Origin: Cellulomonas composti
Lineage (GTDB): Bacteria; Actinomycetota; Actinomycetes; Actinomycetales; Cellulomonadaceae
DNA length: 64,000 nucleotides
Assembly: GCF_007990245.1 (NCBI RefSeq)
Contig: NZ_BJWG01000014.1
Coordinates: 1-64,000 of the forward strand
Reading direction: 5' to 3'
Shown here: positions 49,825-63,976 of the stretch, one piece after another
Position numbering within the stretch: the first letter of the stretch is position 1
Layout of the letters: every line of letters starts with the position of its first letter
Notes under the pieces: generated by a model
The model's database searches: none
What the model was told of the DNA's origin: nothing
Seen by the model: the letters and a program-made list of their open reading frames with translations, nothing else
Translations under genes and position numbers: made by a program

Positions 49825-52677
49825 ATGGCGCTGCTCGTGGTCGATGTCGCATCAAGCAGTACGTACGAGTTGCTGCATCACTTCCACGACGCGCTCGCAT
49901 CCCACTACTCGGACCTGCGCGCCGCTCGGGCCAAGCTCGAACCCGCGTCGCCGGTCTTCGCGCTTGAGCACGACCTGCCACCTGACGACCTCGACCTACT
50001 CAAGGGCGCGGTTCGCAACGCGATCAAGCTCGGCCACCTCTCGCGGTATCAGCGGGCCTGGCTGCCATTCGTGGTCTATGCAGCCGAAGTGGGCTACGGA
50101 TACGTGGGCGACGAATACTGGACCACCTTCACTTCGTTGACACCCCGCTGGACGAGCCAGGAGCGCTCGACCGTTCGCGACTGGTTCGTCCAATTTCATA
50201 GAGATTTCGGCGGCGCCCACCCTTCCGGCGCGTGGGCCGATCACTTCACGATCATTGCGTGGCCCATCACGCACGCCGTCCTGCCGACGTACCTCCAGCG
50301 AAACCTCGCCAAGCTGCTGTTCGAGTTCAGCGGTGCGCTGACCTCGGACCTTCTCGACGATCCTGAGGCACTCGGCGTCCGGCTGGCTCGCCGTGCGTCC
50401 AATTACACAGAGCGCTTCCGCATCTTCTGCCAGAACACGGCCCTGGTCGGCCAGGTTGCCGTGGCCCTGCTTTCGGGCGAGAGCGAGCCGACGCCCTTCC
50501 TGTCCGCCTCGACACTGGCGCGCATCGTGGACGGACTCTCCACGGAGTCGCAGGCCCGAAACTGGCTCAAGTCCGCGAGGGCCTCGGCTCGTCGCGTTCG
50601 CGGCTTCCGCTCTGGTGAGCGAGGACCGGCAGGTGGGGCGACACCGAAGAGACTGCCACGCGCGACCGACCCCCGCCTGTTCCTCAGGAAGGACGGTGTG
50701 TGGACCGCCTACGCAGAGCTGCCGGATCTCACAGTGGTTGGGCTGGAAGGGCAGGAGATCTACGGCCAGCTGCGGACGTCGCGCGCCACGGTGAGCGGTG
50801 CGGCGCGACCGATTCCCCCGAGCGGCTTGCTCTACCCGGGACAGGAGGTCAGCTTCGCTAGCTGGCCTCGTCCCGACCAGCCGTTCCTTCGGCTGGATCG
50901 TGGCGACCCACGGACCAATAGCTTCCTGGCCACCCAGTGCGTCATCACAAAGGGGCCATGGTGGCTGTTCCGACGACAGGGCACGGGACTGGCGATCGAG
51001 GTCAAGGGGAAGTTCGTCCGGCCTGGGCACCAATACCTGTTGGTCGGCGTAGAGACCCTTACCGCCCCACCAGTGCCGTGGTGTGCCGAAGTGGCAATCA
51101 CGGCACGCGGCGTCAGGGCCTTCGACCTCTGGGTGCCACCGCACCTCAAGGAGACCGACGAGGAAGCACTCCTGGCTACGGGGCTCTCGGTTGTGTCGCA
51201 TGTCGCGATCCGACCAGTCGGCACGGTGGCGAGCGCTTGGGACGGTGAGGGTGAGGTCGAATGGGTCGCTGGCGAGCCAGCCATTCTCGGCATCCGCTCC
51301 GACCTCGTTCCAAAGCGCGCTCGAGTCGTCGTCGCGGATACGGCCTACTTCCTCGACTGGACGGCAGATGAGCCCGAGTTGCTGTTCACGCTCGAAGGCT
51401 TGCCTGTAGGCACGCACGAACTCAGCGTCGCGCTGTTTGGTAACGGTGAGCGTCAGCTCGCTTCTGGTGCGTTGGTCGTCACCATCCGTGATCCCCAAGT
51501 GCGTGCCGAGGGTGCCACCATCGGCGAGGGAATCCGTATGCTTGCCAACCCAGCGCGCCCAACACTGGCCGAGCTATGGGACGAGCGTGCCGCCATCGCC
51601 ATCGACGGACCGCCAGGCACTGGTGCCGACTTGAGCGTCGCGCTCTTGGACGACAAGGCTGCTCCACTTGTGAATCTGCGCCGTTCGGTGCACTTGCCGC
51701 TCGGAGAGGCCGACTGGCGCACCATCGCAAGATCGGTCCGGACCGACCAGCGATTCGTCGAGGCCTACGACAACTCCGAGTCGTGCATCATCTCGGTATC
51801 TCGAGATGGCATTGGTTTCGCCACGCTCACCTCCGAGCGAGGGTTCCAGCCACTGCGGTGGCGGCTCACCCGTTCCCACGACGGAGACGTGATCGCAAAG
51901 CTCGTCGACCGGACGGACGGTGGCACAACAAGCCTCGACTTCTACAACGTCGACACCCCGCTGACAGCGGTCCGGAAGAACCCTGCCGAGGTGCTTTCTG
52001 TACCGCCACGTGGCGGGCTCGTGATCGCCAGAGCTGGCGATTCGGTCGCTGCGGCCATGCTGCCGACCAACCCCACCGCCTTGCTGCACATGCCCTCAGC
52101 CAGCCCGGTTGTCCCCGCTTCGTCACGCACGCCCAAGGAAGTGCTGCGGCTCGCCGAGGGTCATCGACGTTGGATCCATGCCGAACTTCCCGCCGACGCG
52201 TTCGCCGCCTACCAGCAGCGGCTTGTAGGCGACGCCATCGCTCGTGCGATCGGAACGCTCATTGGCGGCAGTCACTGGGCAGCCATCGAGCTAGCGGTGG
52301 CGGGGGCACGGGACGCCGCCGACCATCTCGAAGCGATGCAAGCGGCCGTCGGCGTCTCTACGGAGCAGAAGGCTGTCGCTTCGACAATCGCCTACAGCCT
52401 CTACAGGTGGCTCAAGCCAGAGGAGTTGCTGCCTGGATTCCACGGAGTCATCTCACCCCACCTGACAAGACACGGCCTCGATGGGCGGCGCTCCGTGCCG
52501 CGGTTCCTCCTCATGCTCGCGGGACGACCTGGCTACATCACCGAGTGGGATCCCAGCGAGGCAGCGACCATCCTTGATCGCGTGCTCCTGTCTCCGGTGC
52601 TCTACCGAGCGGCTCGCTTCGCTGTCCTCGGCACTCGCGCACTCAATGACGCCGAAGGCGTGGAGCGGAGCTTCTAG
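49825..52677 (+). CDS. unknown 950-residue defence-island protein
   Basis: No family with known function is recognised. The N-terminal ~180 residues are helical with a striking WLPFVVYAAEVGYGYVGDEYWTTF segment (about 75-100) of a type I recall from other defence-island proteins. The middle (about 290-560) looks rich in beta strands, with small Ig-like or sandwich domains (LFTLEGLPVGTHELSVALFGNG). The C-terminal ~170 residues are helical. No nuclease, ATPase or methylase motif is visible. It could match DruH or DruB/C of Druantia by size and position, but this is inference. ATG at 49825 has AAGGAG only two to three bases upstream; the GTG at 49837 is better spaced and possible. It overlaps the next gene by one base. 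Confidence 0.75.
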   Translation: MALLVVDVASSSTYELLHHFHDALASHYSDLRAARAKLEPASPVFALEHDLPPDDLDLLKGAVRNAIKLGHLSRYQRAWLPFVVYAAEVGYGYVGDEYWTTFTSLTPRWTSQERSTVRDWFVQFHRDFGGAHPSGAWADHFTIIAWPITHAVLPTYLQRNLAKLLFEFSGALTSDLLDDPEALGVRLARRASNYTERFRIFCQNTALVGQVAVALLSGESEPTPFLSASTLARIVDGLSTESQARNWLKSARASARRVRGFRSGERGPAGGATPKRLPRATDPRLFLRKDGVWTAYAELPDLTVVGLEGQEIYGQLRTSRATVSGAARPIPPSGLLYPGQEVSFASWPRPDQPFLRLDRGDPRTNSFLATQCVITKGPWWLFRRQGTGLAIEVKGKFVRPGHQYLLVGVETLTAPPVPWCAEVAITARGVRAFDLWVPPHLKETDEEALLATGLSVVSHVAIRPVGTVASAWDGEGEVEWVAGEPAILGIRSDLVPKRARVVVADTAYFLDWTADEPELLFTLEGLPVGTHELSVALFGNGERQLASGALVVTIRDPQVRAEGATIGEGIRMLANPARPTLAELWDERAAIAIDGPPGTGADLSVALLDDKAAPLVNLRRSVHLPLGEADWRTIARSVRTDQRFVEAYDNSESCIISVSRDGIGFATLTSERGFQPLRWRLTRSHDGDVIAKLVDRTDGGTTSLDFYNVDTPLTAVRKNPAEVLSVPPRGGLVIARAGDSVAAAMLPTNPTALLHMPSASPVVPASSRTPKEVLRLAEGHRRWIHAELPADAFAAYQQRLVGDAIARAIGTLIGGSHWAAIELAVAGARDAADHLEAMQAAVGVSTEQKAVASTIAYSLYRWLKPEELLPGFHGVISPHLTRHGLDGRRSVPRFLLMLAGRPGYITEWDPSEAATILDRVLLSPVLYRAARFAVLGTRALNDAEGVERSF

Positions 52678-53765
52678 TGAGAATCGCAAAGCTAACGGCC
52701 GAATCGGCATCGCGACTTGCCGTCGAGACACTCGGCCTTGACGCGGATTCCGTCGGACTGACGTCTGTCGAGGGGATTGCAGTCTCCTTGCGCCGAGCCG
52801 CTTCCTTCATGTGTCCGACGAGCCCATCGAGGATGGTCGACGCGGTGCTTGGCGCCGTCCGACCACTCGGCGGCGACGAGCTTCAGCGCGACGACGTTGC
52901 CGAGATACTTGAACAACTAGTCGCGTCGGGCGACCTGCTGGAACTCCGGCACGAGGGAGGGCGATCGACCCGATTGCTCTACCTAGCGCCGCCGTCGTTT
53001 ATCGAGCGTTTTCCGGGCACCTACATGGTCATGGGCGTGCGGCCATTCGGCGCACACCTGATCGGAGACGAGCTTGCTCGTGCGATCGAGTATGAGGGTC
53101 ACACCCGCGTTCTGAAGACTGATCCCGTTGAGGCCGACTCTGAGTTGCGTGCCCGAGGGCTGCAACGGGTGGCCAAGGACCGCTGGGTAGCACGCCCGAG
53201 CAGCGAGACTCCGGCAGATCTCATCGGGCGCCACCAAGCACGCCTCGATGTCGCGACAACAGCAGGTGAGCTCGACGGACTGCAACTGCTCGATCCGGCG
53301 TCGAAGGTGCGCTACTACCGGGGGCGCTGGCGGACACCGGCACAGACCGACACCGGCGACTATGTCGCCCGGCGGCCGCAAGCCTATGGTGCTGATCTCT
53401 GGTGTCTCGTGCGGCTTGAGGCGGGTGCGCCCACGCGGCTCATGGAGTTTCCCGTCGCAGATCCGGTGGTCCCTGGGCGCGACGAGGCCTGGCGCTATCA
53501 GGCGGCGGTCGATGCACTTAGAGGAACCGCCCAGCAGTTCCGCATCCGCCGCGGCAACCAACCGAGCGACGACCCGACGCTCGACTTCTTCTCGCCACTT
53601 CCAGGCTTCGCCGAGCGATATGTGCAGTTCACCGGACTGGCGCTCGGCAAGACCCCCGGCGCCCTGTTCTCGTTCCGGTTGCCCGCGGCGGCACTTGCCG
53701 ACACGACGAACTTCCTCACTGACATGCTCTGGATGACCGACCAGGAGGACAGCAGTGGCGACTGA
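52677..53765 (+). CDS. unknown 362-residue protein with a possible winged-helix domain
   Basis: No family is recognised. The region about 50-110 (MVDAVLGAVRPLGGDELQRDDVAEILEQLVASGDLLEL, then STRLLYLAPPSFIER) has the look of a winged helix: helix, helix, then a strand hairpin. The remainder is mixed alpha/beta, with LWCLVRLEAGAPTRLMEFP and a C-terminal FAERYVQFTGLALGKTPGALFSFRLP. No catalytic motif. GTG start overlaps the stop of the 950-residue gene (TAG/GTG share one base), and its end overlaps the helicase start by 11 bases, so it is made together with the helicase and may be its adaptor or DNA-binding partner. Confidence 0.7.
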   Translation: MRIAKLTAESASRLAVETLGLDADSVGLTSVEGIAVSLRRAASFMCPTSPSRMVDAVLGAVRPLGGDELQRDDVAEILEQLVASGDLLELRHEGGRSTRLLYLAPPSFIERFPGTYMVMGVRPFGAHLIGDELARAIEYEGHTRVLKTDPVEADSELRARGLQRVAKDRWVARPSSETPADLIGRHQARLDVATTAGELDGLQLLDPASKVRYYRGRWRTPAQTDTGDYVARRPQAYGADLWCLVRLEAGAPTRLMEFPVADPVVPGRDEAWRYQAAVDALRGTAQQFRIRRGNQPSDDPTLDFFSPLPGFAERYVQFTGLALGKTPGALFSFRLPAAALADTTNFLTDMLWMTDQEDSSGD

Positions 53766-56700
53766 AGCGCCCACGATCGCGGAGACGATCGACGAGATCC
53801 AGGCCGCCCTGCGCGACTACATCGAGGCGACGTACCACGTCGGCCACCCCACGATCATCGAGCAGCGCCGGCAACTCCTGACGTCGGAGGGCGTGCTCTT
53901 CAGAGCGCCATACATTGAGAGCACCCCGCGGTATCAGACAAATCGGCGCTTCGGCGACTTGGATATCGACCCACAGATCCACGCGTTGTTCGGAACGCTC
54001 ACCCAGAAGATTGGCAACCTCGACCGGCTGATTTATGACCCGCCGTACACCCACCAGGCGGAAGCTCTCGAGTCGACCTCGCGCGATGAGATGAGCCTCG
54101 CCATCACAACCGGCACCGGATCCGGCAAGACGGAGTCATTCTTGCTCCCGATGCTTGCCAAACTCGCTACGGAGGCGGCGCATCGGCCAGCCTCGTTCGC
54201 CGCTCCCGCCGTTCGGGCTCTGATCCTCTATCCGATGAACGCGTTGGTAAATGATCAGCTCGGTCGCCTGCGCCTGCTCCTTGGTGACCCACGTGTCACT
54301 GCGCAGTTCGAGGCCTGGGCCGGGCGTCCCGCACGCTTCGCCCGCTACACCAGCCGCACGCTCTACCCGGGCGTCCGGACCGTCAAGAAGGACATCCAGC
54401 GGCTGGGCTCCATCGAAGACTTTTACTTGCTCTTGATCGACCAGGCGGCCGATCCTTCAGCGCCGGGCCACGCACAGGCGAAGGCACTGAAGGAGAAGCT
54501 CGAACAACGCGGCAAGTGGCCGGCCAAGCCTGACCTCAAGAAGTGGTTCGGGCCGAAGGGCTCCCGTTGGAAGGACACCAAGACCGACGAGTTCATCCGG
54601 GCCGTCATGCAACCGAACGACCCGGAGCTTCTCACGAGGCATGAGGTCCTGGCTGCTCCGCCAGACGTGCTCATCACTAACTACTCGATGCTGGAGTACA
54701 TGCTGATGCGGCCGCTCGAACGGCCGGTCTTCGATCACACCCGCGAGTGGCTGGCCAGCAACCCCGAAGAGAAGTTTCTGCTCGTCGTTGACGAGGCGCA
54801 CCTCTATCGAGGCGCGGCCGGAGCCGAAGTGGCGCTTCTACTACGCCGGCTTCGATCGCGGCTCGGTATCGCTCCTGAACGGTTGCAGGTGATCACGACC
54901 AGCGCGTCGTTCACTACCCCGGAGTACGCGCGTGGATTTGCGGCCCAGTTGACGGGCAAGGATCCGGACGACTTCCGCACAGTCACCAGTCAATGGGCAC
55001 TTCGGTCCGGCGCGTCGACCGGTTCGACCGCCGATGCGTCGTTGCTAGCAAACGTGCCATTGGCTGAGTTCTACGCCGGAGACTCGGACGCAGACCGGGC
55101 TGCAGCCGTTGCTGACCTCCTCAACGAACGCGGCGTAGCTGATCACCGCCGAGGGATCGGCGTGCTCCTACACGATGCGTTGGCTGAGTACGGACCGATG
55201 AACCTGCTCGTCAACGAGACGATGCAAAGGGCCCAGCCCGTCAGTGAGCTGGGACAGATCATCTTCCCGGGTGTCGAGGCGTCAACGGCCGACAGGGCCG
55301 TCACCACGCTGGTGGCGCTCGGCAGTGGAGCGCGCCGCACACCAGACGAGGCTGGATTGCTGCCGTGCCGCGTCCACGCCTTCTTCCGAGGTCTTCCGGG
55401 TTTGTGGGCGTGTCTCGATCCAGATTGTGGCGCGGTGGACCGCAGCACATTGGCGCCAGGTCTCGGACCGATCGGCAAGCTGTACGCCCAACCTCAGGCC
55501 ACATGCGAGTGTGGATCTCGCGTGTTCGAGTTCTATACGTGCCGTCACTGCGGGTCGGCCTACGCCCGCACCTACACCGACAACCTGCTGGATCCGGACT
55601 TCCTGTGGCATGAGCCGGGCGGCGCGTTCCAGGCGACCACAGGCTCAGTCCCGGAGCTGTTTCCACTCGATCTGCTTCTCGAGGAGCCGTCGGCGGGGCA
55701 GGTGGAGGTAGCTGAGATCGACCTAGTCACGGGTCGACTCCGGACTGACCACCCGCCCATTCGCAGCCGCGTCGTGTTCCTCCCGAAGCTCCGAGCCGGC
55801 GAGACCGTGACCAGCGATGACGATGATGAAGGCTCCGACGATCAGGCAGAGGCCAACGGCGAGTTCAAGCCTTGTGGCGTTTGCGGCCAGCTGGCTGGGT
55901 TCGGGCGCTCCTCTGTCCAGGACCACCAGACGAAGGGTGACCAACCGTTCCAGGCGTTAGTGACCCGGCAGATCGAAGTCCAGCCGCCGAGCGCGCCGTA
56001 CTCGGACTTTGCTCCGCTTCGGGGACGCAAGGTGCTGGCGTTCTCCGACTCGCGGCAGGTCGCCGCTCGTCTTGCGCCGAACCTGCAGGACTACTCGATG
56101 CGTGACGTGATTCGCCCCCTCATCCTCAAGGGGTGGACTGATCTAGCTGCCCAGCCCGGCATAGCCACGCAGCTCAGCCTTGAGCGCCTCTACCTGGCTG
56201 TCATGGTCGGCGCCAAGCAACTCAAGGTGCGCCTGCGCCCCGAACTGCGCCAAGCGGAGTCGCTCCACGTGGTGCGCGACGTCGGCAGGGCCGTCGACAA
56301 GGGAGCGTTGAGCGGCGACGTCGACGCCATGGTGGAGCTGCTCATGCTCACCGCGCAGCCGCCGCAAGCCTTGATGCGTGCCATGTACGCCACGCTGACG
56401 GGCAAGTACTACGGCCTCATGTCACTCGGATTGGCATCACTACGCGAGAAGGCCAGCCTGACGGACGAGTTACTAGCTGCGTTGCCGACGATTCCCGGCG
56501 TCGCGACCACCGATGAGGAACGACTTGCGCTCCTCCGACTGTGGCTGGCGCAGTGGTCAACTCCGGCGCGCGGGATCTGGTTCCCCGGGATGACACAGGA
56601 GTGGTGGCGGCAGAAGGACGGCGTCAAGCCGCACTCGGGCAAGTTCCAGACGATCGAGCGCTTGCTCGGCACGTCGGCAGCCAGGAAGGTCTTCAAGGAC

Positions 56701-59328
56701 TCATGGTTACCGGCGATCTTGCCGAGGTTCTGCGAGATGCAGGACCCCAAGTATCGACTACTGGCCGGCAATGTCGCGCTCGAGATCGGTGGCCTGTGGG
56801 GCTACTGCGAACGCTGCCGCTTCACGCAGCGCCCGTTCCCCGGATCGAGCAAATGCATTAGCTGCGGGGGCACCGACGTCCGCACTCTCGACCCAGAAGC
56901 AGACGAAGTCTTCCGGGCACGAAAGGGCTACTACCGAGAAAGTTCCAAGCGGGCGCTAGAGACGCCCGAGAAGCCGATCATGAGCATCATCGCCGCGGAG
57001 CACACTGCCCAGCTCAACGCGGCCCAGTCCGACGCAGTCTTTTCGCGCGCCGAGGAGTACGAACTCTTGTTCCAGGACGTCAATGTTGGTCTCCCGCGTC
57101 CGGGCGAGCAGGAGCGCGCTGCCATCGACGTGTTGTCCTGCACGACCACCATGGAGGTCGGCATCGACATCGGCAGCCTGTCTGGGGTCGCGCTGCGCAA
57201 TATGCCCCCTTCGCGGGCGAACTACCAGCAGCGGGCCGGTCGCGCCGGACGTCGTGGAAACGCCATCGCCACCGTTGTCGCCTTCGGTAGCGCCGACACC
57301 CATGACGATCACTATTTTCGCAACCCTGACCTCATGATCCGCGGCGAGGTCGACGACCCGATCCTGACGCTCGACAACGACGAGATCGCCCGTCGCCACG
57401 TCACCGCTTACCTGCTGCAGCGCTACAACCAGGACCGGTTGCCACGGATCGACCCTGAGGACCAGCCACAGCTGTTCGAGGTGCTCGGCACGGTACGCGG
57501 TTTCGTCGGTACGACGTCGCCGCTCAACCGCGCCGACCTCGAAGATTGGCTCGTCCAGAACCTGCCCGACCTCAGGCAGGACGTCGACTCTTGGCTGCCC
57601 TCGGAGCTGAAGCCTGAGGCCCGTCGGACGATCCTCGACGAGTTGGCCATCCAGACACTTCGTGCTATCGACGAGGCCCTGGGCCTGGAACCCGACGGCA
57701 ACCTGCCCAAGCCAGAGGGCAGCGACGCCACTCCGGCCAACGAAGAAGTCGAGGAGGGCGACGCAGGCGAGGACGGCGCAGAGTTACCAAGCGAGCCGCG
57801 CAGTCAGACCAACCTTCTCGACCGTCTGCTGTACAAGGGCGTCCTGCCGCGCTACGCCTTTCCTACGGACGTCGTCGCGTTCCACGTCTTCGACCGCGAT
57901 AAGTCGGAGCCGTTCCACACCGAGTTCCGCTACGCGCCAAGCCAAGGACTACCGATCGCACTCAGCCAGTACGCACCAGGGAAGGTCGTCTGGATCGACA
58001 ACAAGGAGTGGACATCCGGGGCTATCTACGCTCCGGTGCACAAGGAACGATTCCAGGCCTGGCGCGATAGGTGGCTCTACTTCGAATGCCAGGTCTGCCA
58101 CTACGCCAAGCACTTTCCCTACGACCAGGCGGAGCGCGGCGAGGAGCGCAACTGTCCGGCGTGCGGCGCGGTCGACAAGTTCGGCAAGGCGATGAACTGG
58201 ATGCGACCGCCTGGCTTTGCTCACCGTGCCAACGACGAGCCGGGTACGAGCCCTGATGATGCTCCGGCGAACAGCTATGCGACACGCGCCAAGCTGGTGG
58301 CTGAAGGTCCCGAGGAGGAAGAAGCGTGGGACCACGTCACCGACCGTCTCGAACAGACCTACCGTCGCGACACGCTTCTCGTCACCAATACGGGACCTCG
58401 CAGCGAGGGGTATACGTACTGCACCCTGTGCGGCCTCATTGAGCCGACCAAGGGCGCGACCGGTGTGGTGTCTGGCACCCACCCCAAGCCGTACCCAGAC
58501 GAGCGCGAACCAGACTGCCAAGGGTCGGCCTCGACGCGCGGGCTGGTGCTCGGCACCGACTTCATTTCGGACGTTCTATTGGTCCGGCTCAAGGTCGAGT
58601 CACCACTCACCCTCCGACCGGAGCTTCTCTCAACGCAGGTGGCGCTCCGGACGATCGCGGAGGCCCTGACGATCGCCGCGACAGGCGAACTCGACGTGGA
58701 CGCCAGCGAGTTGCAGGCCGAGTATCGGCCTGCGTTGACGCCAGCCGGGAACCACGGCCTCGAGGCCGAGATCTACCTGTACGACACCCTCGCGGGCGGT
58801 GCTGGATTCACCCGCCGTGTACACGGCTACGGCCTCTCAATCTTCAGGAGGGCGCTGGAGCGACTCGAATCCTGTCCCGCCAACTGCGACGCCTCCTGCT
58901 ATCGCTGCCTTCGGAGCTTCCGCAACCGATTCGAGCACGGACTGCTCGATCGCAAGGTTGGCGCCGCACTGCTGAGATACGTGCTCGACGGCACCATGCC
59001 AACCCTTGATGACGTGCGGACGAGCCAGTCGATCGACAAGCTCCTTGCCGACCTCGACAGCCGCGGCATTGACGGCATCGAGTTTCTCAAGGACGAGCCG
59101 ATCCAGATCGATGGCCTCGGCACGATCACGGCGCCGCTGCTGGCACGGGGCAAGGGACGTGACCGGATCTTCTACATCCAGAGCCCGCTCACGCGGGACC
59201 TACCGGCGACGCAGGAGCTCTGGGATGCCAAGGAGCTTGGTGGGATCCCGGTCTATCCGGTGGACGACATGGTCGTGCAGCGGAACCTTCCTGTAGCGAG
59301 CCAGCAGGTGCTCCAGTGGCTCAACTGA
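53755..59328 (+). CDS. druE: large DEAH helicase with zinc-binding clusters and DUF1998-like C-terminus (DruE-like)
   Basis: This 1857-residue superfamily 2 helicase resembles DruE, the hallmark of Druantia anti-phage systems. Walker A TGTGSGKTES lies at about 119-128, the DEAH box VVDEAHLY at about 345-352, and motif VI QQRAGRAGRRG at about 1159-1169. The helicase lobes are split by long inserts with Cys pairs (CECGSRVFEFYTCRHCG; CGVCGQ; CERCRF...CISCGG; CQVCHY...CPACGA; CTLCG). The C-terminus has SCPANCDASCYRCLRSF (about 1706-1722), the DUF1998/MrfA-type cysteine motif. GTG start with AGGAGG upstream, inside the previous gene. TTA leucine codons at 56470, 56707 and 57784, rare in this GC range, indicate foreign origin. 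DISARM DrmA/DrmB or MrfA are alternatives; fused helicase plus DUF1998 in one chain of this length favours DruE. Confidence 0.85.
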   Translation: MATEAPTIAETIDEIQAALRDYIEATYHVGHPTIIEQRRQLLTSEGVLFRAPYIESTPRYQTNRRFGDLDIDPQIHALFGTLTQKIGNLDRLIYDPPYTHQAEALESTSRDEMSLAITTGTGSGKTESFLLPMLAKLATEAAHRPASFAAPAVRALILYPMNALVNDQLGRLRLLLGDPRVTAQFEAWAGRPARFARYTSRTLYPGVRTVKKDIQRLGSIEDFYLLLIDQAADPSAPGHAQAKALKEKLEQRGKWPAKPDLKKWFGPKGSRWKDTKTDEFIRAVMQPNDPELLTRHEVLAAPPDVLITNYSMLEYMLMRPLERPVFDHTREWLASNPEEKFLLVVDEAHLYRGAAGAEVALLLRRLRSRLGIAPERLQVITTSASFTTPEYARGFAAQLTGKDPDDFRTVTSQWALRSGASTGSTADASLLANVPLAEFYAGDSDADRAAAVADLLNERGVADHRRGIGVLLHDALAEYGPMNLLVNETMQRAQPVSELGQIIFPGVEASTADRAVTTLVALGSGARRTPDEAGLLPCRVHAFFRGLPGLWACLDPDCGAVDRSTLAPGLGPIGKLYAQPQATCECGSRVFEFYTCRHCGSAYARTYTDNLLDPDFLWHEPGGAFQATTGSVPELFPLDLLLEEPSAGQVEVAEIDLVTGRLRTDHPPIRSRVVFLPKLRAGETVTSDDDDEGSDDQAEANGEFKPCGVCGQLAGFGRSSVQDHQTKGDQPFQALVTRQIEVQPPSAPYSDFAPLRGRKVLAFSDSRQVAARLAPNLQDYSMRDVIRPLILKGWTDLAAQPGIATQLSLERLYLAVMVGAKQLKVRLRPELRQAESLHVVRDVGRAVDKGALSGDVDAMVELLMLTAQPPQALMRAMYATLTGKYYGLMSLGLASLREKASLTDELLAALPTIPGVATTDEERLALLRLWLAQWSTPARGIWFPGMTQEWWRQKDGVKPHSGKFQTIERLLGTSAARKVFKDSWLPAILPRFCEMQDPKYRLLAGNVALEIGGLWGYCERCRFTQRPFPGSSKCISCGGTDVRTLDPEADEVFRARKGYYRESSKRALETPEKPIMSIIAAEHTAQLNAAQSDAVFSRAEEYELLFQDVNVGLPRPGEQERAAIDVLSCTTTMEVGIDIGSLSGVALRNMPPSRANYQQRAGRAGRRGNAIATVVAFGSADTHDDHYFRNPDLMIRGEVDDPILTLDNDEIARRHVTAYLLQRYNQDRLPRIDPEDQPQLFEVLGTVRGFVGTTSPLNRADLEDWLVQNLPDLRQDVDSWLPSELKPEARRTILDELAIQTLRAIDEALGLEPDGNLPKPEGSDATPANEEVEEGDAGEDGAELPSEPRSQTNLLDRLLYKGVLPRYAFPTDVVAFHVFDRDKSEPFHTEFRYAPSQGLPIALSQYAPGKVVWIDNKEWTSGAIYAPVHKERFQAWRDRWLYFECQVCHYAKHFPYDQAERGEERNCPACGAVDKFGKAMNWMRPPGFAHRANDEPGTSPDDAPANSYATRAKLVAEGPEEEEAWDHVTDRLEQTYRRDTLLVTNTGPRSEGYTYCTLCGLIEPTKGATGVVSGTHPKPYPDEREPDCQGSASTRGLVLGTDFISDVLLVRLKVESPLTLRPELLSTQVALRTIAEALTIAATGELDVDASELQAEYRPALTPAGNHGLEAEIYLYDTLAGGAGFTRRVHGYGLSIFRRALERLESCPANCDASCYRCLRSFRNRFEHGLLDRKVGAALLRYVLDGTMPTLDDVRTSQSIDKLLADLDSRGIDGIEFLKDEPIQIDGLGTITAPLLARGKGRDRIFYIQSPLTRDLPATQELWDAKELGGIPVYPVDDMVVQRNLPVASQQVLQWLN

Positions 59329-60536
59329 CCGGGCCGCGGGTGCACGACACTGGTGTCGTCTCCAGGCAAGCCGTCCTTCCGGATCCTCCCGACCTGTGGA
59401 GTTACTCGTCTCTCAAGGACGTCGAGACATGCCCACGCCGGTATGCGCTCTCGCGGGCCGCATATCCCCAACTCTGGGAGCAACCCGGCTACCCGCGCTT
59501 GCCCATCACCGCGGCGATCCGCGGTGACGTAGTGCACGGCGCGCTCGAGCTCATCGTCAAGGCACTGGTGAACGCAGGCTGCACATCGACCCGCTCTGCG
59601 GAAGCGGTTGCAGTCCTGCGGGAACTTGGCGGCTACACAAAGGTCGCGGAGACCAGTCTCGCGAGGCAGCTCGCACGACTGGACGGGAACCCACGTCTCG
59701 GCACCGCCCGGCGCGAGCAACTCGCCCGCCAACTCACCGATGGGCTTCCGCAGGTGCGCGTGCAGATTCAGACATATCTGAACCGAATGGAACTCCGCCC
59801 GTCGGCGGGTCGCCAGTCGGGCTCACCGCCGAGTCGCCCAGCAGTGCGCTATCCCGCGCGGGTGGGCGATCACCCAGAGAAGGTTCTGGTAGCCGACTCG
59901 CTTCGCCTCATGGGGCGCATCGATCTACTCAGCGTCGATGCCACCGGTGTCCAGATCACAGACTTCAAGACGGGTGCGGAGGATCCGACGCATCACGATC
60001 AGCTTCAGATATACGTGCTGCTTTGGCGCGAAGACAGCCTGTCCAACCCGAAGGGACTGGCGGTATTGAAGCTTGTCGCGGCCTATCCCAGTCGCGACAT
60101 TGCAGCGGCGGTGCCGTCGGCTGAGGAACTGACGGCTCTTTGTACCCAGCTGACGACCAAGATCGACGCGGCCGACGCTGCCGTCGCTGCGGAAGTTCCG
60201 GCAGCGATCGTCGGCGATCACTGCAGCATGTGCAACGTTCGCGGTGTGTGCGACGCGTACTGGACGACAGGCCTCAAGGCGACGGCCGACGTAGCTGAGG
60301 GGACTTGGTACGACCTGGCCGGCACGGTCCTTCGGAATCACGGAGTCAGAAGCATTGTGCTGCTCGAGTCCCTCACCAATGCCGAAGTGTTGGTCAGAAC
60401 ACCGACGCCTTCCTACGCCGTCCCCGTCGAGAGAAACGTCCGAGTCCTGGGTGCTCGACGGGTCGTGGACCCGGACGACCCGGACTCGCTCGTCGCTGCA
60501 CTCACAAGCGTGTCCGAGGTACTGGAACTGGCGTAG
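59316..60536 (+). CDS. PD-(D/E)XK nuclease with predicted Fe-S cluster (AddB/RecB/Cas4-like)
   Basis: This 406-residue protein has the RecB-family nuclease fold: His74 in GDVVHGALE, Asp203 in MGRIDLL, Asp216 and Lys218 in ITDFKTG, and the QxxxY-like HDQLQIYVLLW. Cys39 (ETCPRRY) with Cys303, Cys306 and Cys312 (CSMCNVRGVC) gives the one-plus-three pattern that binds a 4Fe-4S cluster in AddB and Cas4 nucleases. All catalytic residues are present. A ~90-residue C-terminal beta-rich tail follows. The GTG start overlaps the helicase end by 13 bases, so the helicase and nuclease are translationally coupled and likely act together on DNA ends or flaps. Confidence 0.88.
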   Translation: MAQLTGPRVHDTGVVSRQAVLPDPPDLWSYSSLKDVETCPRRYALSRAAYPQLWEQPGYPRLPITAAIRGDVVHGALELIVKALVNAGCTSTRSAEAVAVLRELGGYTKVAETSLARQLARLDGNPRLGTARREQLARQLTDGLPQVRVQIQTYLNRMELRPSAGRQSGSPPSRPAVRYPARVGDHPEKVLVADSLRLMGRIDLLSVDATGVQITDFKTGAEDPTHHDQLQIYVLLWREDSLSNPKGLAVLKLVAAYPSRDIAAAVPSAEELTALCTQLTTKIDAADAAVAAEVPAAIVGDHCSMCNVRGVCDAYWTTGLKATADVAEGTWYDLAGTVLRNHGVRSIVLLESLTNAEVLVRTPTPSYAVPVERNVRVLGARRVVDPDDPDSLVAALTSVSEVLELA

Positions 60537-60539
60537 CCC

Positions 60540-62528
60540 TCACGCTTCACGCGCACCGGTCCATGGCTCACTCACCAGGAGTTCTTCGTCGTCCGTCGGC
60601 AGCGGCACTCTGGCGCCGTGACGGATCGGGCGCACCAAACTGTTGCCCCGCATGGCCTCTTGGACGTGCTCCAGCGTCGCACGCCGGCGTGCCCAACGTT
60701 CGTACCACCACTGGGCAACGGCCTCGCCGCTGTCTCTTGCTGTCGGGTCAAGGAGGTACTTCGGATCCTGGACCACGCCCAGCGAGTAGTCACGTACGTT
60801 CTCGACAAGGGGTACGCCGTACAAGATGCGCTCCCGGCCGTGCCTCTGCAGCTCGTTCGTCGGCCAGCCAAGTGCCGCCAGACCGAGACGCACCTTGCGG
60901 AGGCGAGGGCTCACGCCCTCGCCGAACAGGCTGTTGACCCGAACAAAGCCGCCGCTGTGCTCGCAGAGCCGAACAAGCGCATCAACGGTGGCGTCAGAGA
61001 AGTGCGACGAGCCAAACGACCGTGAACGTCCCAACTCGTAGAACCCCATCCTCGCGCCACCTTGACCTCCCATCGTCGAAGCAGGCCAGAACAGCCGGTT
61101 GTACTGGCTGGAGCCGGTGCCGTATAGAGATGTGGTGCCGACGAACGCCAGCCTGGCTTCGCGGGTTATCGGGCGTCCGGCCATCGCCGAGGCGATCTCG
61201 CTCGGGCGTGAGTACTTGGCCCGGTAGGAGGCCAACACCGTTGGTGATACGGCTAGCGCGCCGACCAACTTGCCAGCTGCGAGTGCGTTGTAAGGCGCCA
61301 CGGCTCCACACACGGTCAGATCCGCAATGACCGTACCGACGCGCTCACCCCGGGCGCGCCGAGCCAGTCGTCCGATCTGGGTCTTGGCCTTGGTGTCGGC
61401 GAGTGCGCTTCGTAGTCCGTCGACAGACGGCGATGTGCCAAGGTAACCGCCAACCAACGCCTGTATCTCGAGCGTCTCGGCGAGCAGCGCCGAGCGCTTC
61501 GACCGGAAGAGGTACGTCTCCGCTCGCGCTACCCAGGCGTCGGTCTCGATGCTGCGGACCTCGCGAACCACACCTGCACGGTGGTGCTTCGCCCGGTGGC
61601 GCTCGGCATCGGCCTTGAGACGAGCCACCACGTTCGGCGTCGGCCGCTTGAGATCACCCGGCTGCAGCACACCGTCGCGCAGCAGGTCTTCGACATAGAT
61701 CTCTGCGCGCTGAGTCTCGATGCGACGACCGAGCCACTTCGCCATCTCGTCCGTCGGCTCCGCTTCGATCGAGGCCACGAACTGCTTGGTGTCCCACCCC
61801 ATCCAGTCATCTCGCTCCGCGATCTGGACGACTGGACTAGAGATCGCTGCGATCCCGATCACCGCGTGGAACTCGGTGGCTGCGTCTCTGATCAGGATGG
61901 GCATTGAGCGGCCGGGCACCGTTGAGTACGCGTTGGACCAGGTGTGGCGAAAGTAGCGCCAGATGTCATGGAGCTTGAAGCCAGTCAGCCCGCAGGTGCT
62001 AGCACTGTCGACGACCTGTACGTACGGCTGAATGGTGTCTGGCGCCTCAGGGTGTTGCCTGAGAGTGTCGGCCAGTTCACGGCCGTCGCGCATGAGGTTG
62101 AAGACCGAGACGAGCTTGCCTGCGTGCTGGTGGCTTCGCTCCATGCTCCGAACGAATCGCTGGACACTCGGCTGGCGGAGTTGGGCGTCTCTTCGCAGGT
62201 GCTCCTGTCGCCGGATTCGAGCCTTCTCCGTGTCGCGATCGGCGTGGGTGTCAGGCGGACTCAGGAGCGGGCCGTACTTGTCGACGTGTACCAGCCAGCC
62301 TTGATCAACAAGGTCAATGACGGTGTGGGCCGCGGCGGCGAGGGTCGGCTTGTTGTAGACGTCCGTGAGCCCTGCGGCGGTGAACAAAGACGTGTGGTCG
62401 AGCGGGACTTCCGGGTCGAACTGAGCGTGTGCCAACAGATGGCACAGACTGGCGAAGCCCTTTCGCTCCGTCGTCGTGGCGCCGGCCGGGAGCGTGAGCG
62501 GAACGTACTTGACATCGTCTTCGGTCAT
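60540..62528 (-). CDS. DUF4338 protein (DruA-like)
   Basis: This 662-residue protein carries a DUF4338-type core at about 190-250: IWRYFRHTWSNAYSTVPGR, ILIRDAATEFHAVIGIAAI and RDDWMGWD, the pattern of DruA in type I Druantia. An N-terminal ~120-residue helical region, rich in Arg/Lys, and a ~400-residue C-terminal part (ERVGTVIADLTVCGAVAPYNALAAGKLVGAL, LYGVPLVENVRDYSLG) complete it. Biochemical function of the family is not clear to me; no canonical nuclease motif is seen. The ATG at 62528 overlaps the stop of the ATPase gene (ATGA), which is preferred to an earlier in-frame start at 62564. Three bases separate its stop from the convergent nuclease stop. Confidence 0.8.
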   Translation of the reverse strand: MTEDDVKYVPLTLPAGATTTERKGFASLCHLLAHAQFDPEVPLDHTSLFTAAGLTDVYNKPTLAAAAHTVIDLVDQGWLVHVDKYGPLLSPPDTHADRDTEKARIRRQEHLRRDAQLRQPSVQRFVRSMERSHQHAGKLVSVFNLMRDGRELADTLRQHPEAPDTIQPYVQVVDSASTCGLTGFKLHDIWRYFRHTWSNAYSTVPGRSMPILIRDAATEFHAVIGIAAISSPVVQIAERDDWMGWDTKQFVASIEAEPTDEMAKWLGRRIETQRAEIYVEDLLRDGVLQPGDLKRPTPNVVARLKADAERHRAKHHRAGVVREVRSIETDAWVARAETYLFRSKRSALLAETLEIQALVGGYLGTSPSVDGLRSALADTKAKTQIGRLARRARGERVGTVIADLTVCGAVAPYNALAAGKLVGALAVSPTVLASYRAKYSRPSEIASAMAGRPITREARLAFVGTTSLYGTGSSQYNRLFWPASTMGGQGGARMGFYELGRSRSFGSSHFSDATVDALVRLCEHSGGFVRVNSLFGEGVSPRLRKVRLGLAALGWPTNELQRHGRERILYGVPLVENVRDYSLGVVQDPKYLLDPTARDSGEAVAQWWYERWARRRATLEHVQEAMRGNSLVRPIRHGARVPLPTDDEELLVSEPWTGAREA

Positions 62529-63976
62529 GACTTCTGCAGCATCCGTCCGTAGGTACCGCTCCACGCCTCGACGAGATCGTCCACCGGGCGTCCGGCCCGC
62601 TCCATCTGAACGACGCTCCGTGCGAAGGACAACAGGAGCAACTCAAGAGACGTGCGCAGTTCTGCAGCCACCTCACCCTCAATGGCTAGCAGCGGTTGAT
62701 ACAGCGCCGCGAAAGCAGGGTGGTCAGCGTTGAGCGTCAGATCGAGAGTCCGTTGGGCAAGCGTCGACTGGAACATCGCGTCCATCGGAAGAACCTTCGT
62801 TCGCAGCCGGTACTCGATCGCTCCCCGCCTCCCGGGCGATGGGATGACCGGAAGGTCCGGGTCTGCTGCCGTCGCAATGCGGCAGGCGGCCGCCGTGGCA
62901 TCCTGAAACTTGACGTCCTCGAAGGCCTGGCGAACGCGGGCATTGAGCATCCGGGCGAGTGACTCCAACTCTGGTTCGATGGCCTCCCGCAGTGTCGCCG
63001 AGGGCCGGATACCTTGCTTGTTGATCGTGATGCCGAAGTGTTCGTCCAAGCGGGGTTCAAACTCGATCTCGCAGCGCCACCAGTCGTCGTAGTTCTCCTT
63101 GCGCTTGCTGCCCATGAGGTGCCAGCCGCTGGCGATCTCACGTCCCGCGCGCAGGATCGACACACCGCCGCCGCCGACGATGCCGACGCGACGTTTGGTG
63201 ACGTTGTCGAGGCGATGCCACGCCTGCACGGGGAGTTCCGTGAAGCGGACTGTCACGACCGACGTACCGCCGTCGGCTGTCTCCAATTCGTAGTGGAGTT
63301 CGTCGAAGGCGAGTCGTGCAGTCACACCCTCCAACTTGATCGTGAGCAGCATCGGATCGACAGGCTTCACGTGCGATCCGTTGATCGTCATAGTCAGCCC
63401 GGCACTCAGGGTGCGCCGATAGATCCGTCCCATGTCACGTTGAAGCGACCGTTCAAGCCAGACCAGTCGTCGATACTCGATCCGGTCGCACTGCAACCAT
63501 CGAACGCGGCAACCCGACCCGCTCCCACGCTTGCTTCGCCGCTCAGAACTGAGGGTCGGAGCGGCACCGGCGACGACAGCGTCTAGGTCGAGCGTGACGG
63601 TGCGTTCGTAGCCACCGTCTCGCCATGCTGTCACCTCGACACGACGTGCTTGGCTGAGGCTGGCGGCGGGTAGGCCCATGCCGAATCGACCGAACGACTC
63701 GCGTGTATCGAACCGTGAGGAGCCACCGAAGCGCAGGCAGACGTCCAGTTCAGCCTTGGACATGCCCACGCCGTTGTCTTCCACAGTGATCACGGGGAGC
63801 GAGTCGGGCGTCTCCCGGTGAATCGTGACGGCCACCTGGGTAGCGGAGGCTTGCAGCGAGTTGTCAACCAGTTCCGCCAGGGCGGCCGAAACGGTGAGAT
63901 ACCCGAACTCACGGGCCGCCTGGATGAAGTTGGATGCGACCAGCAGGTCGTCTTGCCGCGGGCGGGGGGCGTGCAT
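62525..63976 (-). CDS. GHKL ATPase (Hsp90/MORC/MutL-like)
   Basis: This 483-residue protein has a Bergerat-fold ATP site: N-box LAELVDNSLQA (Glu35, Asp38, Asn39), the G1 motif VEDNGVGM (Asp67, Gly69, Gly71) and the G2 lid FGRFGMGLPAASLSQA (about 95-110). The middle (about 200-350) resembles the second domain of GHKL/MORC ATPases, and the C-terminus is helical. No histidine-kinase H-box or response regulator is present, so a DNA-clamping or chaperone-type ATPase is more likely than a sensor kinase. ATG at 63976 follows AGAGGAGA. It is the first visible gene of the leftward unit; more genes may lie beyond the window. Confidence 0.85.
   Translation of the reverse strand: MHAPRPRQDDLLVASNFIQAAREFGYLTVSAALAELVDNSLQASATQVAVTIHRETPDSLPVITVEDNGVGMSKAELDVCLRFGGSSRFDTRESFGRFGMGLPAASLSQARRVEVTAWRDGGYERTVTLDLDAVVAGAAPTLSSERRSKRGSGSGCRVRWLQCDRIEYRRLVWLERSLQRDMGRIYRRTLSAGLTMTINGSHVKPVDPMLLTIKLEGVTARLAFDELHYELETADGGTSVVTVRFTELPVQAWHRLDNVTKRRVGIVGGGGVSILRAGREIASGWHLMGSKRKENYDDWWRCEIEFEPRLDEHFGITINKQGIRPSATLREAIEPELESLARMLNARVRQAFEDVKFQDATAAACRIATAADPDLPVIPSPGRRGAIEYRLRTKVLPMDAMFQSTLAQRTLDLTLNADHPAFAALYQPLLAIEGEVAAELRTSLELLLLSFARSVVQMERAGRPVDDLVEAWSGTYGRMLQKS

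What the first reader, a model, noticed from the sequence alone, without database searches (positions are those of the whole stretch)
49825..63976. Druantia-like island with an unusual gene set: two unknowns, DruE-like helicase, Fe-S nuclease, DruA-like protein and GHKL ATPase
Seen: six genes in two converging units with tight overlaps (1, 11 and 13 bases rightward; 4 bases leftward) and three bases between the converging stops. Known: Druantia is defined by DruE (huge helicase with DUF1998); type I adds DruA (DUF4338) with DruB-D in one direction, type II DruM/F/G, type III DruH. Inferred: the combination of DruE-like and DruA-like proteins with a Cas4/AddB-type nuclease and a GHKL ATPase in convergent arrangement matches none of these and may be a new Druantia type or a new composite system.
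Basis: partly seen in the sequence, partly recalled or inferred. Interest (0 to 1): 0.87.

Follow-up and report, generated by a model that had tools for sequence, protein, structure and literature searches.

The report
Variant Druantia type I defence island
This is a variant of a known bacterial anti-phage system (Druantia) built from two gene blocks that are inherited separately, one carrying a DNA helicase with a nuclease and one carrying a clamp-like ATPase with a companion protein, which suggests a plug-in sensor attached to a DNA-destroying machine.

Summary
The six genes are real and placed as described. Three match PADLOC type I models: DruE1 (1995 bits), DruA1 (895), DruD1 (420), so the second 'unknown' is a DruD. 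DruB and DruC are absent. A 950-aa protein (U1) without family match stands in their place; its predicted structure is a chain of Ig-like beta-sandwiches between helical ends.

Of 80 related loci, 77 carry U1, 78 DruD, 73 DruA. Their DruEs split from the two DruC-associated DruEs tested with full support. Long DruA (about 660 aa, GNAT-like) had the GHKL ATPase beside it in 43 of 43, short DruA (about 400 aa) in 0 of 30. The place behind DruE holds one of three nuclease-like genes in 52 of 80. All six genes occur in 24 of 80, convergent as here in 20. The two transcription units co-vary internally but much less with each other, so they reassort as blocks. A seventh gene, an Fpg/Nei-like domain without the catalytic proline, lies just outside the window.

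Verdict: a new variant of Druantia type I, not a new kind. Proposed mechanism (inferred): a mismatch-repair-like reader and ATPase clamp licenses a helicase-nuclease.

The parts
49825..52677 (+). U1: 950-aa protein with no Pfam, PADLOC or NCBIfam match; predicted N-terminal helical domain (about 1-260), chain of Ig/FnIII-like beta-sandwiches (about 284-750), C-terminal helical domain (about 770-944)
   Evidence: family found in 77 of 80 loci; AlphaFold2 mean pLDDT 86.1, pTM 0.46; Foldseek and VIA matches
52677..53765 (+). DruD (362 aa), function unknown
   Evidence: PADLOC DruD1 420.3 bits; weak relation to E. coli DruD
53755..59328 (+). DruE, 1857-aa YprA-family helicase; GTGSGKT, DEAH, QRAGRAGR and four cysteines of the MZB/DUF1998 region intact
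   Evidence: PADLOC DruE1 1995.5 bits; Pfam DEAD, Helicase_C, MZB; motif check
59316..60536 (+). PD-(D/E)XK nuclease of AddB/Cas4 type with cysteines C39, C303, C306, C312 (Fe-S type) and D203, D216-x-K218, Q229, Y233
   Evidence: Pfam PDDEXK_1 78.9 bits; these residues invariant in 26 of 26 aligned rows, the window included; checked in the window protein
60540..62528 (-). long DruA (662 aa, DUF4338); GNAT-like core with an N-terminal extension and an insertion absent from short DruA
   Evidence: PADLOC DruA1 895.3 bits; gap in the alignment of E. coli DruA to the profile; AlphaFold2 pLDDT 90.4, pTM 0.88; VIA list
62525..63976 (-). GHKL (MutL/MORC/MzaB-like) ATPase, 483 aa, Bergerat motifs intact; an Fpg/Nei-like small gene and an XRE regulator lie upstream of it beyond the window edge
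   Evidence: Pfam HATPase_c_3 83.8 bits; NCBIfam MzaB 93.4 bits, under its cut-off of 850; profile matches MORC and MutL structures; motifs

Best explanation
An anti-phage system of the Druantia type I lineage made of two modules. Module 1 (U1-DruD-DruE-nuclease) is the DNA-processing machine: DruE loads on and unwinds infection-related DNA, U1 is an Ig-domain scaffold or sensor, and the Fe-S nuclease works in trans, replacing the C-terminal Vsr domain that is predicted to be inactive in type I DruE. Shown by computation: gene content, conservation, the strict link of GHKL to long DruA in this set, the interchangeable gene behind DruE, the largely separate inheritance of the two modules, and the fold assignments at the stated strength. 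Inferred: defence function of this locus, the clamp step, what is sensed, and nuclease action in trans. Confidence is about 0.9 for the classification and 0.35 for the mechanism; the figure given covers both together.
For: DruE1, DruA1 and DruD1 matches. U1 in 77, DruD in 78 and DruA in 73 of 80 loci; GHKL beside 43 of 43 long and 0 of 30 short DruA. The DruA/GHKL state needs at least 4 changes on the DruE tree and the state of the place behind DruE 16. That place holds the Fe-S nuclease in 32 of 80, a NERD-like nuclease-helicase in 11, or PDC-M02A/B in 9. Correlation of pairwise identities is 0.85-0.96 within module 1, 0.95 for DruA-GHKL and 0.15-0.70 between modules; DruA data reject the DruE clade, p-AU 2.7e-6. 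The profile of the Fpg-like family finds a second place in each of three genomes at E 7e-15 to 4e-12; in the window's genome it is a place that Pfam's Fpg model also marks, hhalign 98.3%. The GHKL profile matches MORC and MutL. Type I DruE is said to have an inactivated Vsr domain (PMC12458937, this part of the Results read). DruH of type III has helical ends and three Ig-like domains and is a likely phage sensor (PMC13192584, passages).
Against: No experiment on this locus. 30 of 73 loci with a DruA have the short form and no GHKL, so module 2 is not universally needed. Outside this clade two long DruAs lack GHKL in the stretch fetched (Haloplanus L104, Hymenobacter L106). The Fpg-like gene is in 19 of 43 GHKL loci, was not listed when the window's genome was searched with Pfam's Fpg model, and its profile found no Fpg in the PDB. 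In 28 of 80 loci none of the three nuclease-like genes was found behind DruE, some of them cut off by contig ends. U1 shows no sequence link to DruB or DruC and matched no PADLOC model, DruH included. Whole-chain TM-scores of the U1 matches are low (about 0.1); only single domains match. The GNAT match of DruA has no Foldseek hit under E 0.001 and VIA Z at most 7.9.
Confidence: 0.45

Rival explanations
1. It is two defence systems side by side: a minimal Druantia core (U1-DruD-DruE with nuclease) and a separate DruA-GHKL system.
For: Largely separate inheritance of the blocks. GHKL-GHKL-DruA occurs without a DruE match in the stretch fetched in Roseivivax L105 and viral contig L108.
Against: DruA is part of nearly every locus (73 of 80); the other 7 lie near a contig end. 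Short DruA stands in front of U1-DruD-DruE in the same direction in 28 of 30 short-DruA loci, and E. coli type I has DruA too. In 394 sampled class genomes GHKL matches at E under 1e-200 occur in 3, the same 3 that have the full-length type I DruE match.
Confidence: 0.2
2. GHKL and long DruA are self-protection or regulatory parts: DruA acylates and so silences a system protein, and GHKL with the Fpg-like protein releases it upon infection.
For: GNAT-like fold of DruA (PMC10853773 passage). An XRE regulator sits upstream of this unit in the window's genome.
Against: No acyl-CoA binding shown. Similar XRE genes were not consistently placed beside the unit in other loci.
Confidence: 0.15
3. A type I Druantia whose DruB and DruC have fused and diverged beyond recognition as U1.
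For: U1 lies where DruB and DruC lie, before DruD; about 950 aa against 548 plus 627 aa.
Against: No match of the U1 profile to E. coli DruB or DruC by hmmsearch or hhalign, though single sequences stood for DruB and DruC. The DruE tree splits the two kinds.
Confidence: 0.2

Closest known systems
Druantia type I (E. coli druABCDE, here strain FREC5, locus L103)
   Same: DruE1, DruA1 and DruD1 family proteins; tightly packed genes
   Different: U1 in place of DruB and DruC; long DruA with GHKL; nuclease behind DruE; second unit convergent
Druantia type III (DruH-DruE)
   Same: YprA-family helicase with a large partner that has helical ends and Ig-like domains
   Different: no DruH match; more genes; type III DruE carries a nuclease domain predicted to be active according to PMC12458937
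MZA system (MzaB)
   Same: GHKL ATPase of the MzaB-like kind
   Different: 93.4 bits against a cut-off of 850; no other MZA gene matched among the six
MutL and MORC ATPases
   Same: intact N-terminal GHKL ATPase motifs
   Different: match limited to about 50-130 residues of the ATPase domain
AddB/Cas4-type Fe-S nucleases
   Same: PD-(D/E)XK core and four invariant cysteines
   Different: not fused to a helicase; best PADLOC match is DruK at 38 bits

Membership tests
Druantia (any type) | DruE helicase with DUF1998/MZB | tested here: met
   DruE1 1995.5 bits over residues 4-1856; MZB 47.7 bits
Druantia type I | DruA (DUF4338) | tested here: met
   DruA1 895.3 bits; Pfam DruA 91 bits
Druantia type I | DruD | tested here: met
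   PADLOC DruD1 420.3 bits; only weakly related to E. coli DruD (which scores 15.7 bits on the same model; hhalign E 4e-4, probability 36%)
Druantia type I | DruB | tested here: not met
   no DruB1 match among the six; E. coli DruB finds nothing at E 1e-3 in the selected ORFs of the loci searched
Druantia type I | DruC | tested here: not met
   no DruC1 match among the six; E. coli DruC finds nothing at E 1e-3 in the selected ORFs of the loci searched
Druantia type I | PADLOC's own rule for calling type I (which genes are required) | not testable with these tools
   the rule files are not held; only the models were run
Druantia type II | DruM, DruF, DruG | tested here: not met
   no such match for five of the six proteins at E up to 1; for DruE the list was cut at 25 of 39 families
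Druantia type III | DruH | tested here: not met
   no DruH match in the lists (the DruE list was cut at 25 of 39)
Druantia type IV | DruF and DruL | tested here: not met
   no such match in the lists; definition from PMC8565338
DruK nuclease | full-length DruK match | tested here: inconclusive
   38.2 bits over residues 188-317
MZA system | MzaB above its curated cut-off, with the other Mza genes | tested here: not met
   93.4 bits against 850; no other Mza match in the lists
GHKL ATPase | Bergerat-fold motifs (N box, G1, G2) | tested here: met
   E35, D38, N39, D67, G69, G71, G96, G99, G101 invariant in 28 aligned rows and present
GNAT fold (DruA) | acetyltransferase-like fold | tested here: inconclusive
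   VIA list dominated by acyltransferases, e.g. 9y12_A Z 7.8, rmsd 3.5 over 138 residues, but no Foldseek hit under E 0.001; PMC10853773 calls DUF4338 a GNAT domain (passage)
Anti-phage system | protection from phage | not testable with these tools
   needs an experiment

The most novel reading that the evidence does not exclude
Druantia type I holds an undescribed, taxonomically broad branch with U1 in place of DruB/DruC, to which a detachable recognition module (catalytically dead Fpg/Nei-like reader, MutL/MORC-type ATPase clamp, GNAT-fold long DruA) is coupled: a mismatch-repair-like damage or modification sensor turned against phage DNA, passed on independently of the helicase-nuclease that it licenses.
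Probability: 0.3. Interest if true: 0.82.

Novelty: new variant of a known kind. Interest (0 to 1): 0.6.

Why it matters
None of the papers seen here works out a mechanism for type I Druantia. This variant splits the system into two co-inherited blocks and gives testable roles: which gene senses, which clamps, which cuts. PADLOC's models match none of the five U1 proteins scanned, although U1 is one of the most constant proteins of this branch, so loci of this branch may be called incomplete. A glycosylase-like domain without its catalytic residue beside a MutL/MORC-type ATPase would point to recognition of altered bases, which many phages carry (recalled).

Tried and rejected
Tried without result: PDB sequence search with the U1, DruD and DruA profiles gave nothing significant. 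The Fpg-like profile against the PDB gave no Fpg at E up to 10, and Pfam's Fpg model run on the window's genome listed four other places but not this gene at E up to 0.1. The link rests on Pfam for the protein itself (29.1 bits, cut-off 25.5; 7 of 15 family members at E up to 0.1; two others shown score below the cut-off and two had no match) and on the genome search and hhalign with the family profile. E. coli DruC in viral contigs: none; in plasmids one record. No direct repeat longer than 11 bases was shared by the two edges, and the end of tRNA-Ala is not repeated at the left edge. U1 against a large partner of another DruE (L013) showed no relation; that protein proved to be DruF/DruL-like, not DruH, so U1 was not compared with a DruH sequence other than through PADLOC's models. 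For the NERD-like proteins, Pfam listed ATPase families but no NERD domain in the three scanned. VIA lists: other folds for U1 and DruA are not excluded.

Considered and rejected: a new system unrelated to type I (one search shows the type I matches); a reading artefact (order conserved in other families); strict universality of GHKL with long DruA (exceptions in L104 and L106).

Three of 80 have no U1: L042 and L058 start near the contig edge (42 and 786 bases before DruE), but L076 has 4.6 kb before DruE without U1. Seven of 80 have no DruA found; all are near a contig end, L076 again with 4.6 kb. L029's DruA is in two pieces and was counted as long; L046's nuclease is in two pieces; L036's GHKL is cut by the contig end. 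The correlation used the window and 29 of the 43 long-DruA loci; L029, L036, L037, L038, L067, the four sphingomonad-type loci (L060, L064, L070, L072) and the five non-convergent loci were left out. One search used the window and 32 loci on a quick tree, and the tested group holds one long row (L046). The DruE tree was FastTree with warned-of long branches, and only two DruC-associated DruEs were in it. The DruB count of 0 of 369 came with no control ringing, so it does not show absence. Two attempts to count U1 in the 394 class genomes failed. An earlier count gave 20 of 43 for the Fpg-like gene; the count is 19.
Full report
1. The observation. The six genes exist at the stated coordinates with the stated overlaps. 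Against PADLOC the second gene is DruD1 (420.3 bits), the third DruE1 (1995.5 bits over residues 4-1856) and the fifth DruA1 (895.3 bits over residues 3-651). The first gene, U1, matches nothing in PADLOC, Pfam or NCBIfam at E up to 1. The fourth is a PDDEXK_1 nuclease (78.9 bits). The sixth is a GHKL ATPase nearest to MzaB, but far under that model's cut-off (93.4 against 850 bits).

2. Relatives. Family profiles built from the window proteins found U1 in 77, DruD in 78 and DruA in 73 of 80. By the record titles printed in the tree, the loci come from eight phyla, most of them Actinomycetota and Pseudomonadota. The smallest form is DruA-U1-DruD-DruE, as on a Nitrosococcus plasmid. The full six-gene set is in 24 of 80 loci and in the window's convergent order in 20 of 80; by record titles these 20 come from eleven named actinobacterial families (some as metagenome bins), with one bin titled Acidobacteriaceae. 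A further locus, on a contig classed as viral, has GHKL-DruA-U1-DruD-DruE in one direction (L107).

3. Comparison with canonical type I. In E. coli FREC5 the order is druA (404 aa), druB (548), druC (627), druD (347), druE (1836). The U1 profile does not match E. coli DruB or DruC, and DruB, DruC and DruD of E. coli find nothing at E 1e-3 in the selected ORFs of the loci searched. E. coli DruD is weakly related to the window DruD (hhalign E 4e-4, probability 36%). In the DruE tree the E. coli sequence and that of a Pseudomonas plasmid, which has a DruC relative (39% identity), stand apart from the other 82 rows with support 100. U1 was found in 2 of 369 sampled genomes of the class of Halotalea, one of them Halotalea itself, the centre of the search; DruB1 in 0 of 369, but no control rang in that search, so it does not show absence.

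4. The GHKL-DruA module. Of the 73 loci with a DruA, 43 have the long form and all 43 have the GHKL gene directly upstream of it (overlapping or within 70 bases; 886 in L029, whose DruA is split); 30 have the short form and none has GHKL. The pair lies convergent behind DruE (38), in front in the same direction (3) or in front and divergent (2). The state needs at least 4 changes on the DruE tree, so the number of independent events is small. Outside the set, two distant long DruAs have no GHKL in the stretch fetched (L104, L106), while L101 and L105 have two GHKL genes each; so do the viral contigs L108 and L109. In 394 sampled genomes of the window's class, GHKL matches at E under 1e-200 occur in 3, the same 3 that have the full-length type I DruE match (one of the three is the window's own genome). 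Weaker GHKL matches at E up to 1e-20 occur in 32 more.

5. DruA. E. coli DruA aligns to the long-DruA profile in two parts, 88-241 and 380-626: the long form has an N-terminal extension and an insertion. The predicted model has no Foldseek match under E 0.001, but about 46 of the 50 listed rows of the VIA answer are acyltransferases of the GNAT or MYST kind by title (some names recalled as such); for example 9y12_A, Z 7.8, rmsd 3.5 over 138 residues. The tool warns that best Z values of 7 to 8 are common without kinship. A published analysis calls DUF4338 a GNAT domain (PMC10853773, passage seen).

6. U1. Predicted with mean pLDDT 86.1 and pTM 0.46, so domains are fairly sure and their arrangement is not. 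Foldseek and VIA give Ig-like, FnIII and complement domains (e.g. 3pdd Z 9.3, rmsd 2.3 over 86 residues at 459-567); whole-chain TM-scores are about 0.1, so only single domains match. Among predicted viral proteins similar chains occur, some named as tail or FnIII proteins. The N-terminal helical part is the most conserved (mean pairwise identity 0.43 against 0.30-0.34 for the sandwiches and 0.26 for the C-terminal part). DruH of type III also has helical ends and three Ig-like domains and is proposed to sense phage structural proteins (PMC13192584, passages seen; a phage tail protein activates type III in M. smegmatis, PMC13316683, passages seen). No homology between U1 and DruH is claimed.

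7. The place behind DruE. It holds the Fe-S nuclease in 32 of 80 loci, a protein with a NERD-like N-terminal region and a helicase-type ATPase in 11, and PDC-M02A (DUF4365) with PDC-M02B in 9 Streptomyces (the PADLOC and Pfam scans covered one of the nine, the rest were joined by clustering). The NERD reading is mine, from an EGxEY, ExD and ExK pattern in the alignment; Pfam listed no NERD domain. That DUF4365 is nuclease-like is recalled; the sequences show a GVD...QLK pattern. Type I DruE is described as carrying an inactivated Vsr nuclease (PMC12458937; introduction, two of three parts of the Results, and the legends read), which fits a nuclease supplied in trans. The nuclease in the window has all the invariant catalytic and cysteine residues. 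In the remaining 28 of 80 loci none of the three kinds was found there.

8. Two blocks. Among the window and 29 actinobacterial loci, pairwise identities correlate at 0.85-0.96 within U1-DruD-DruE-nuclease, at 0.95 between DruA and GHKL, and at 0.15-0.70 between blocks. Bootstrap ranges over loci are 0.86-0.93 (U1-DruE) and 0.92-0.97 (DruA-GHKL), but wide for the four between-block pairs tested (0.21-0.87 overall). The window's DruE is closest to L046 (89%), whose DruA is only 59% identical, while the window's DruA is closest to Dermacoccus L054 (83%), whose DruE is 60% identical. The DruA data reject the clade seen for DruE (p-AU 2.7e-6, quick tree, one long row in the clade).

9. Seventh gene. 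A small gene upstream of GHKL, at C14:64090-64464, has relatives in 19 of the 43 GHKL loci; four of the 24 without it have under 1 kb upstream, so 19 may be low. It matches Pfam Fapy_DNA_glyco above the cut-off (29.1 against 25.5 bits). Its family profile finds a second place in each of three genomes at E 7e-15 to 4e-12; in the window's genome this is a place that Pfam's Fpg model also marks, and hhalign gives 98.3%. Against this: the Pfam model run on the whole genome did not list the small gene itself, and the profile found no Fpg in the PDB. The second residue, the catalytic proline of Fpg (recalled), is alanine, threonine or glycine in the 15 aligned rows, so it is probably a reader, not an enzyme.

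10. Setting. The island has lower GC than its left flank and ends on the right beside an XRE regulator, tRNA-Ala, tRNA-Ile, a DUF3566 gene, gyrA and gyrB, which by common actinobacterial gene order (recalled) is the chromosomal origin region. No flanking repeat longer than 11 bases was found.

11. Prior literature. Searches for Druantia with GHKL and nuclease, Druantia with GNAT, and Fpg with GHKL and phage defense returned nothing; defense with GHKL and DruA returned one unrelated paper. Wider listings were seen as listings; of them I opened parts of PMC12458937, PMC13192584, PMC8565338, PMC7251935, PMC10853773, PMC11090510 and PMC13316683. The PADLOC paper names type IV as its one new Druantia type (section read). 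PMC12458937 mentions 'unappreciated diversity' in types I and II; its supplement could not be read and the original Doron paper is not held, so a prior listing of this gene set is possible.

12. Verdict. A new variant of Druantia type I: it fails the DruB and DruC criteria and meets DruA, DruD and DruE. The mechanism proposed (reader and clamp licensing a helicase-nuclease) is an inference from parts.

Noticed in passing
contig C14:64090-64464 (- strand), 90 bases past the window end; L016:1090-1464: Small conserved protein related to the Fpg/Nei N-terminal domain, lacking the catalytic proline, upstream of the GHKL gene; in 19 of 43 GHKL loci.
   Followed up: yes
contig C14:64552-64830 (- strand); L016:1552-1830: XRE-type regulator upstream of the leftward unit; similar proteins were not consistently placed in other loci.
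   Followed up: partly
contig C14:65032-71000: The island abuts tRNA-Ala, tRNA-Ile, DUF3566, gyrA and gyrB, probably the chromosomal origin region.
   Followed up: partly
L101, L105, L108, L109: Variants with two GHKL genes in tandem before a long DruA, on plasmids and on contigs classed as viral; in L105 and L108 no DruE was found in the stretch fetched.
   Followed up: partly
L104 (Haloplanus plasmid), L106 (Hymenobacter plasmid): Long DruA relatives without a GHKL gene in the stretch fetched, with FtsK-type genes in the neighbourhood; L106's DruA is over 1000 aa and may be a fusion.
   Followed up: no
L024 and eight other Streptomyces loci, behind DruE: The candidate defence pair PDC-M02A/B occupies the nuclease position.
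   Followed up: partly
window:46129-49469 (- strand): The 546-aa frame has ricin-type lectin repeats, and the overlapping 974-aa frame ends in a similar lectin tail by eye, so two neighbouring carbohydrate-active proteins are likely.
   Followed up: partly
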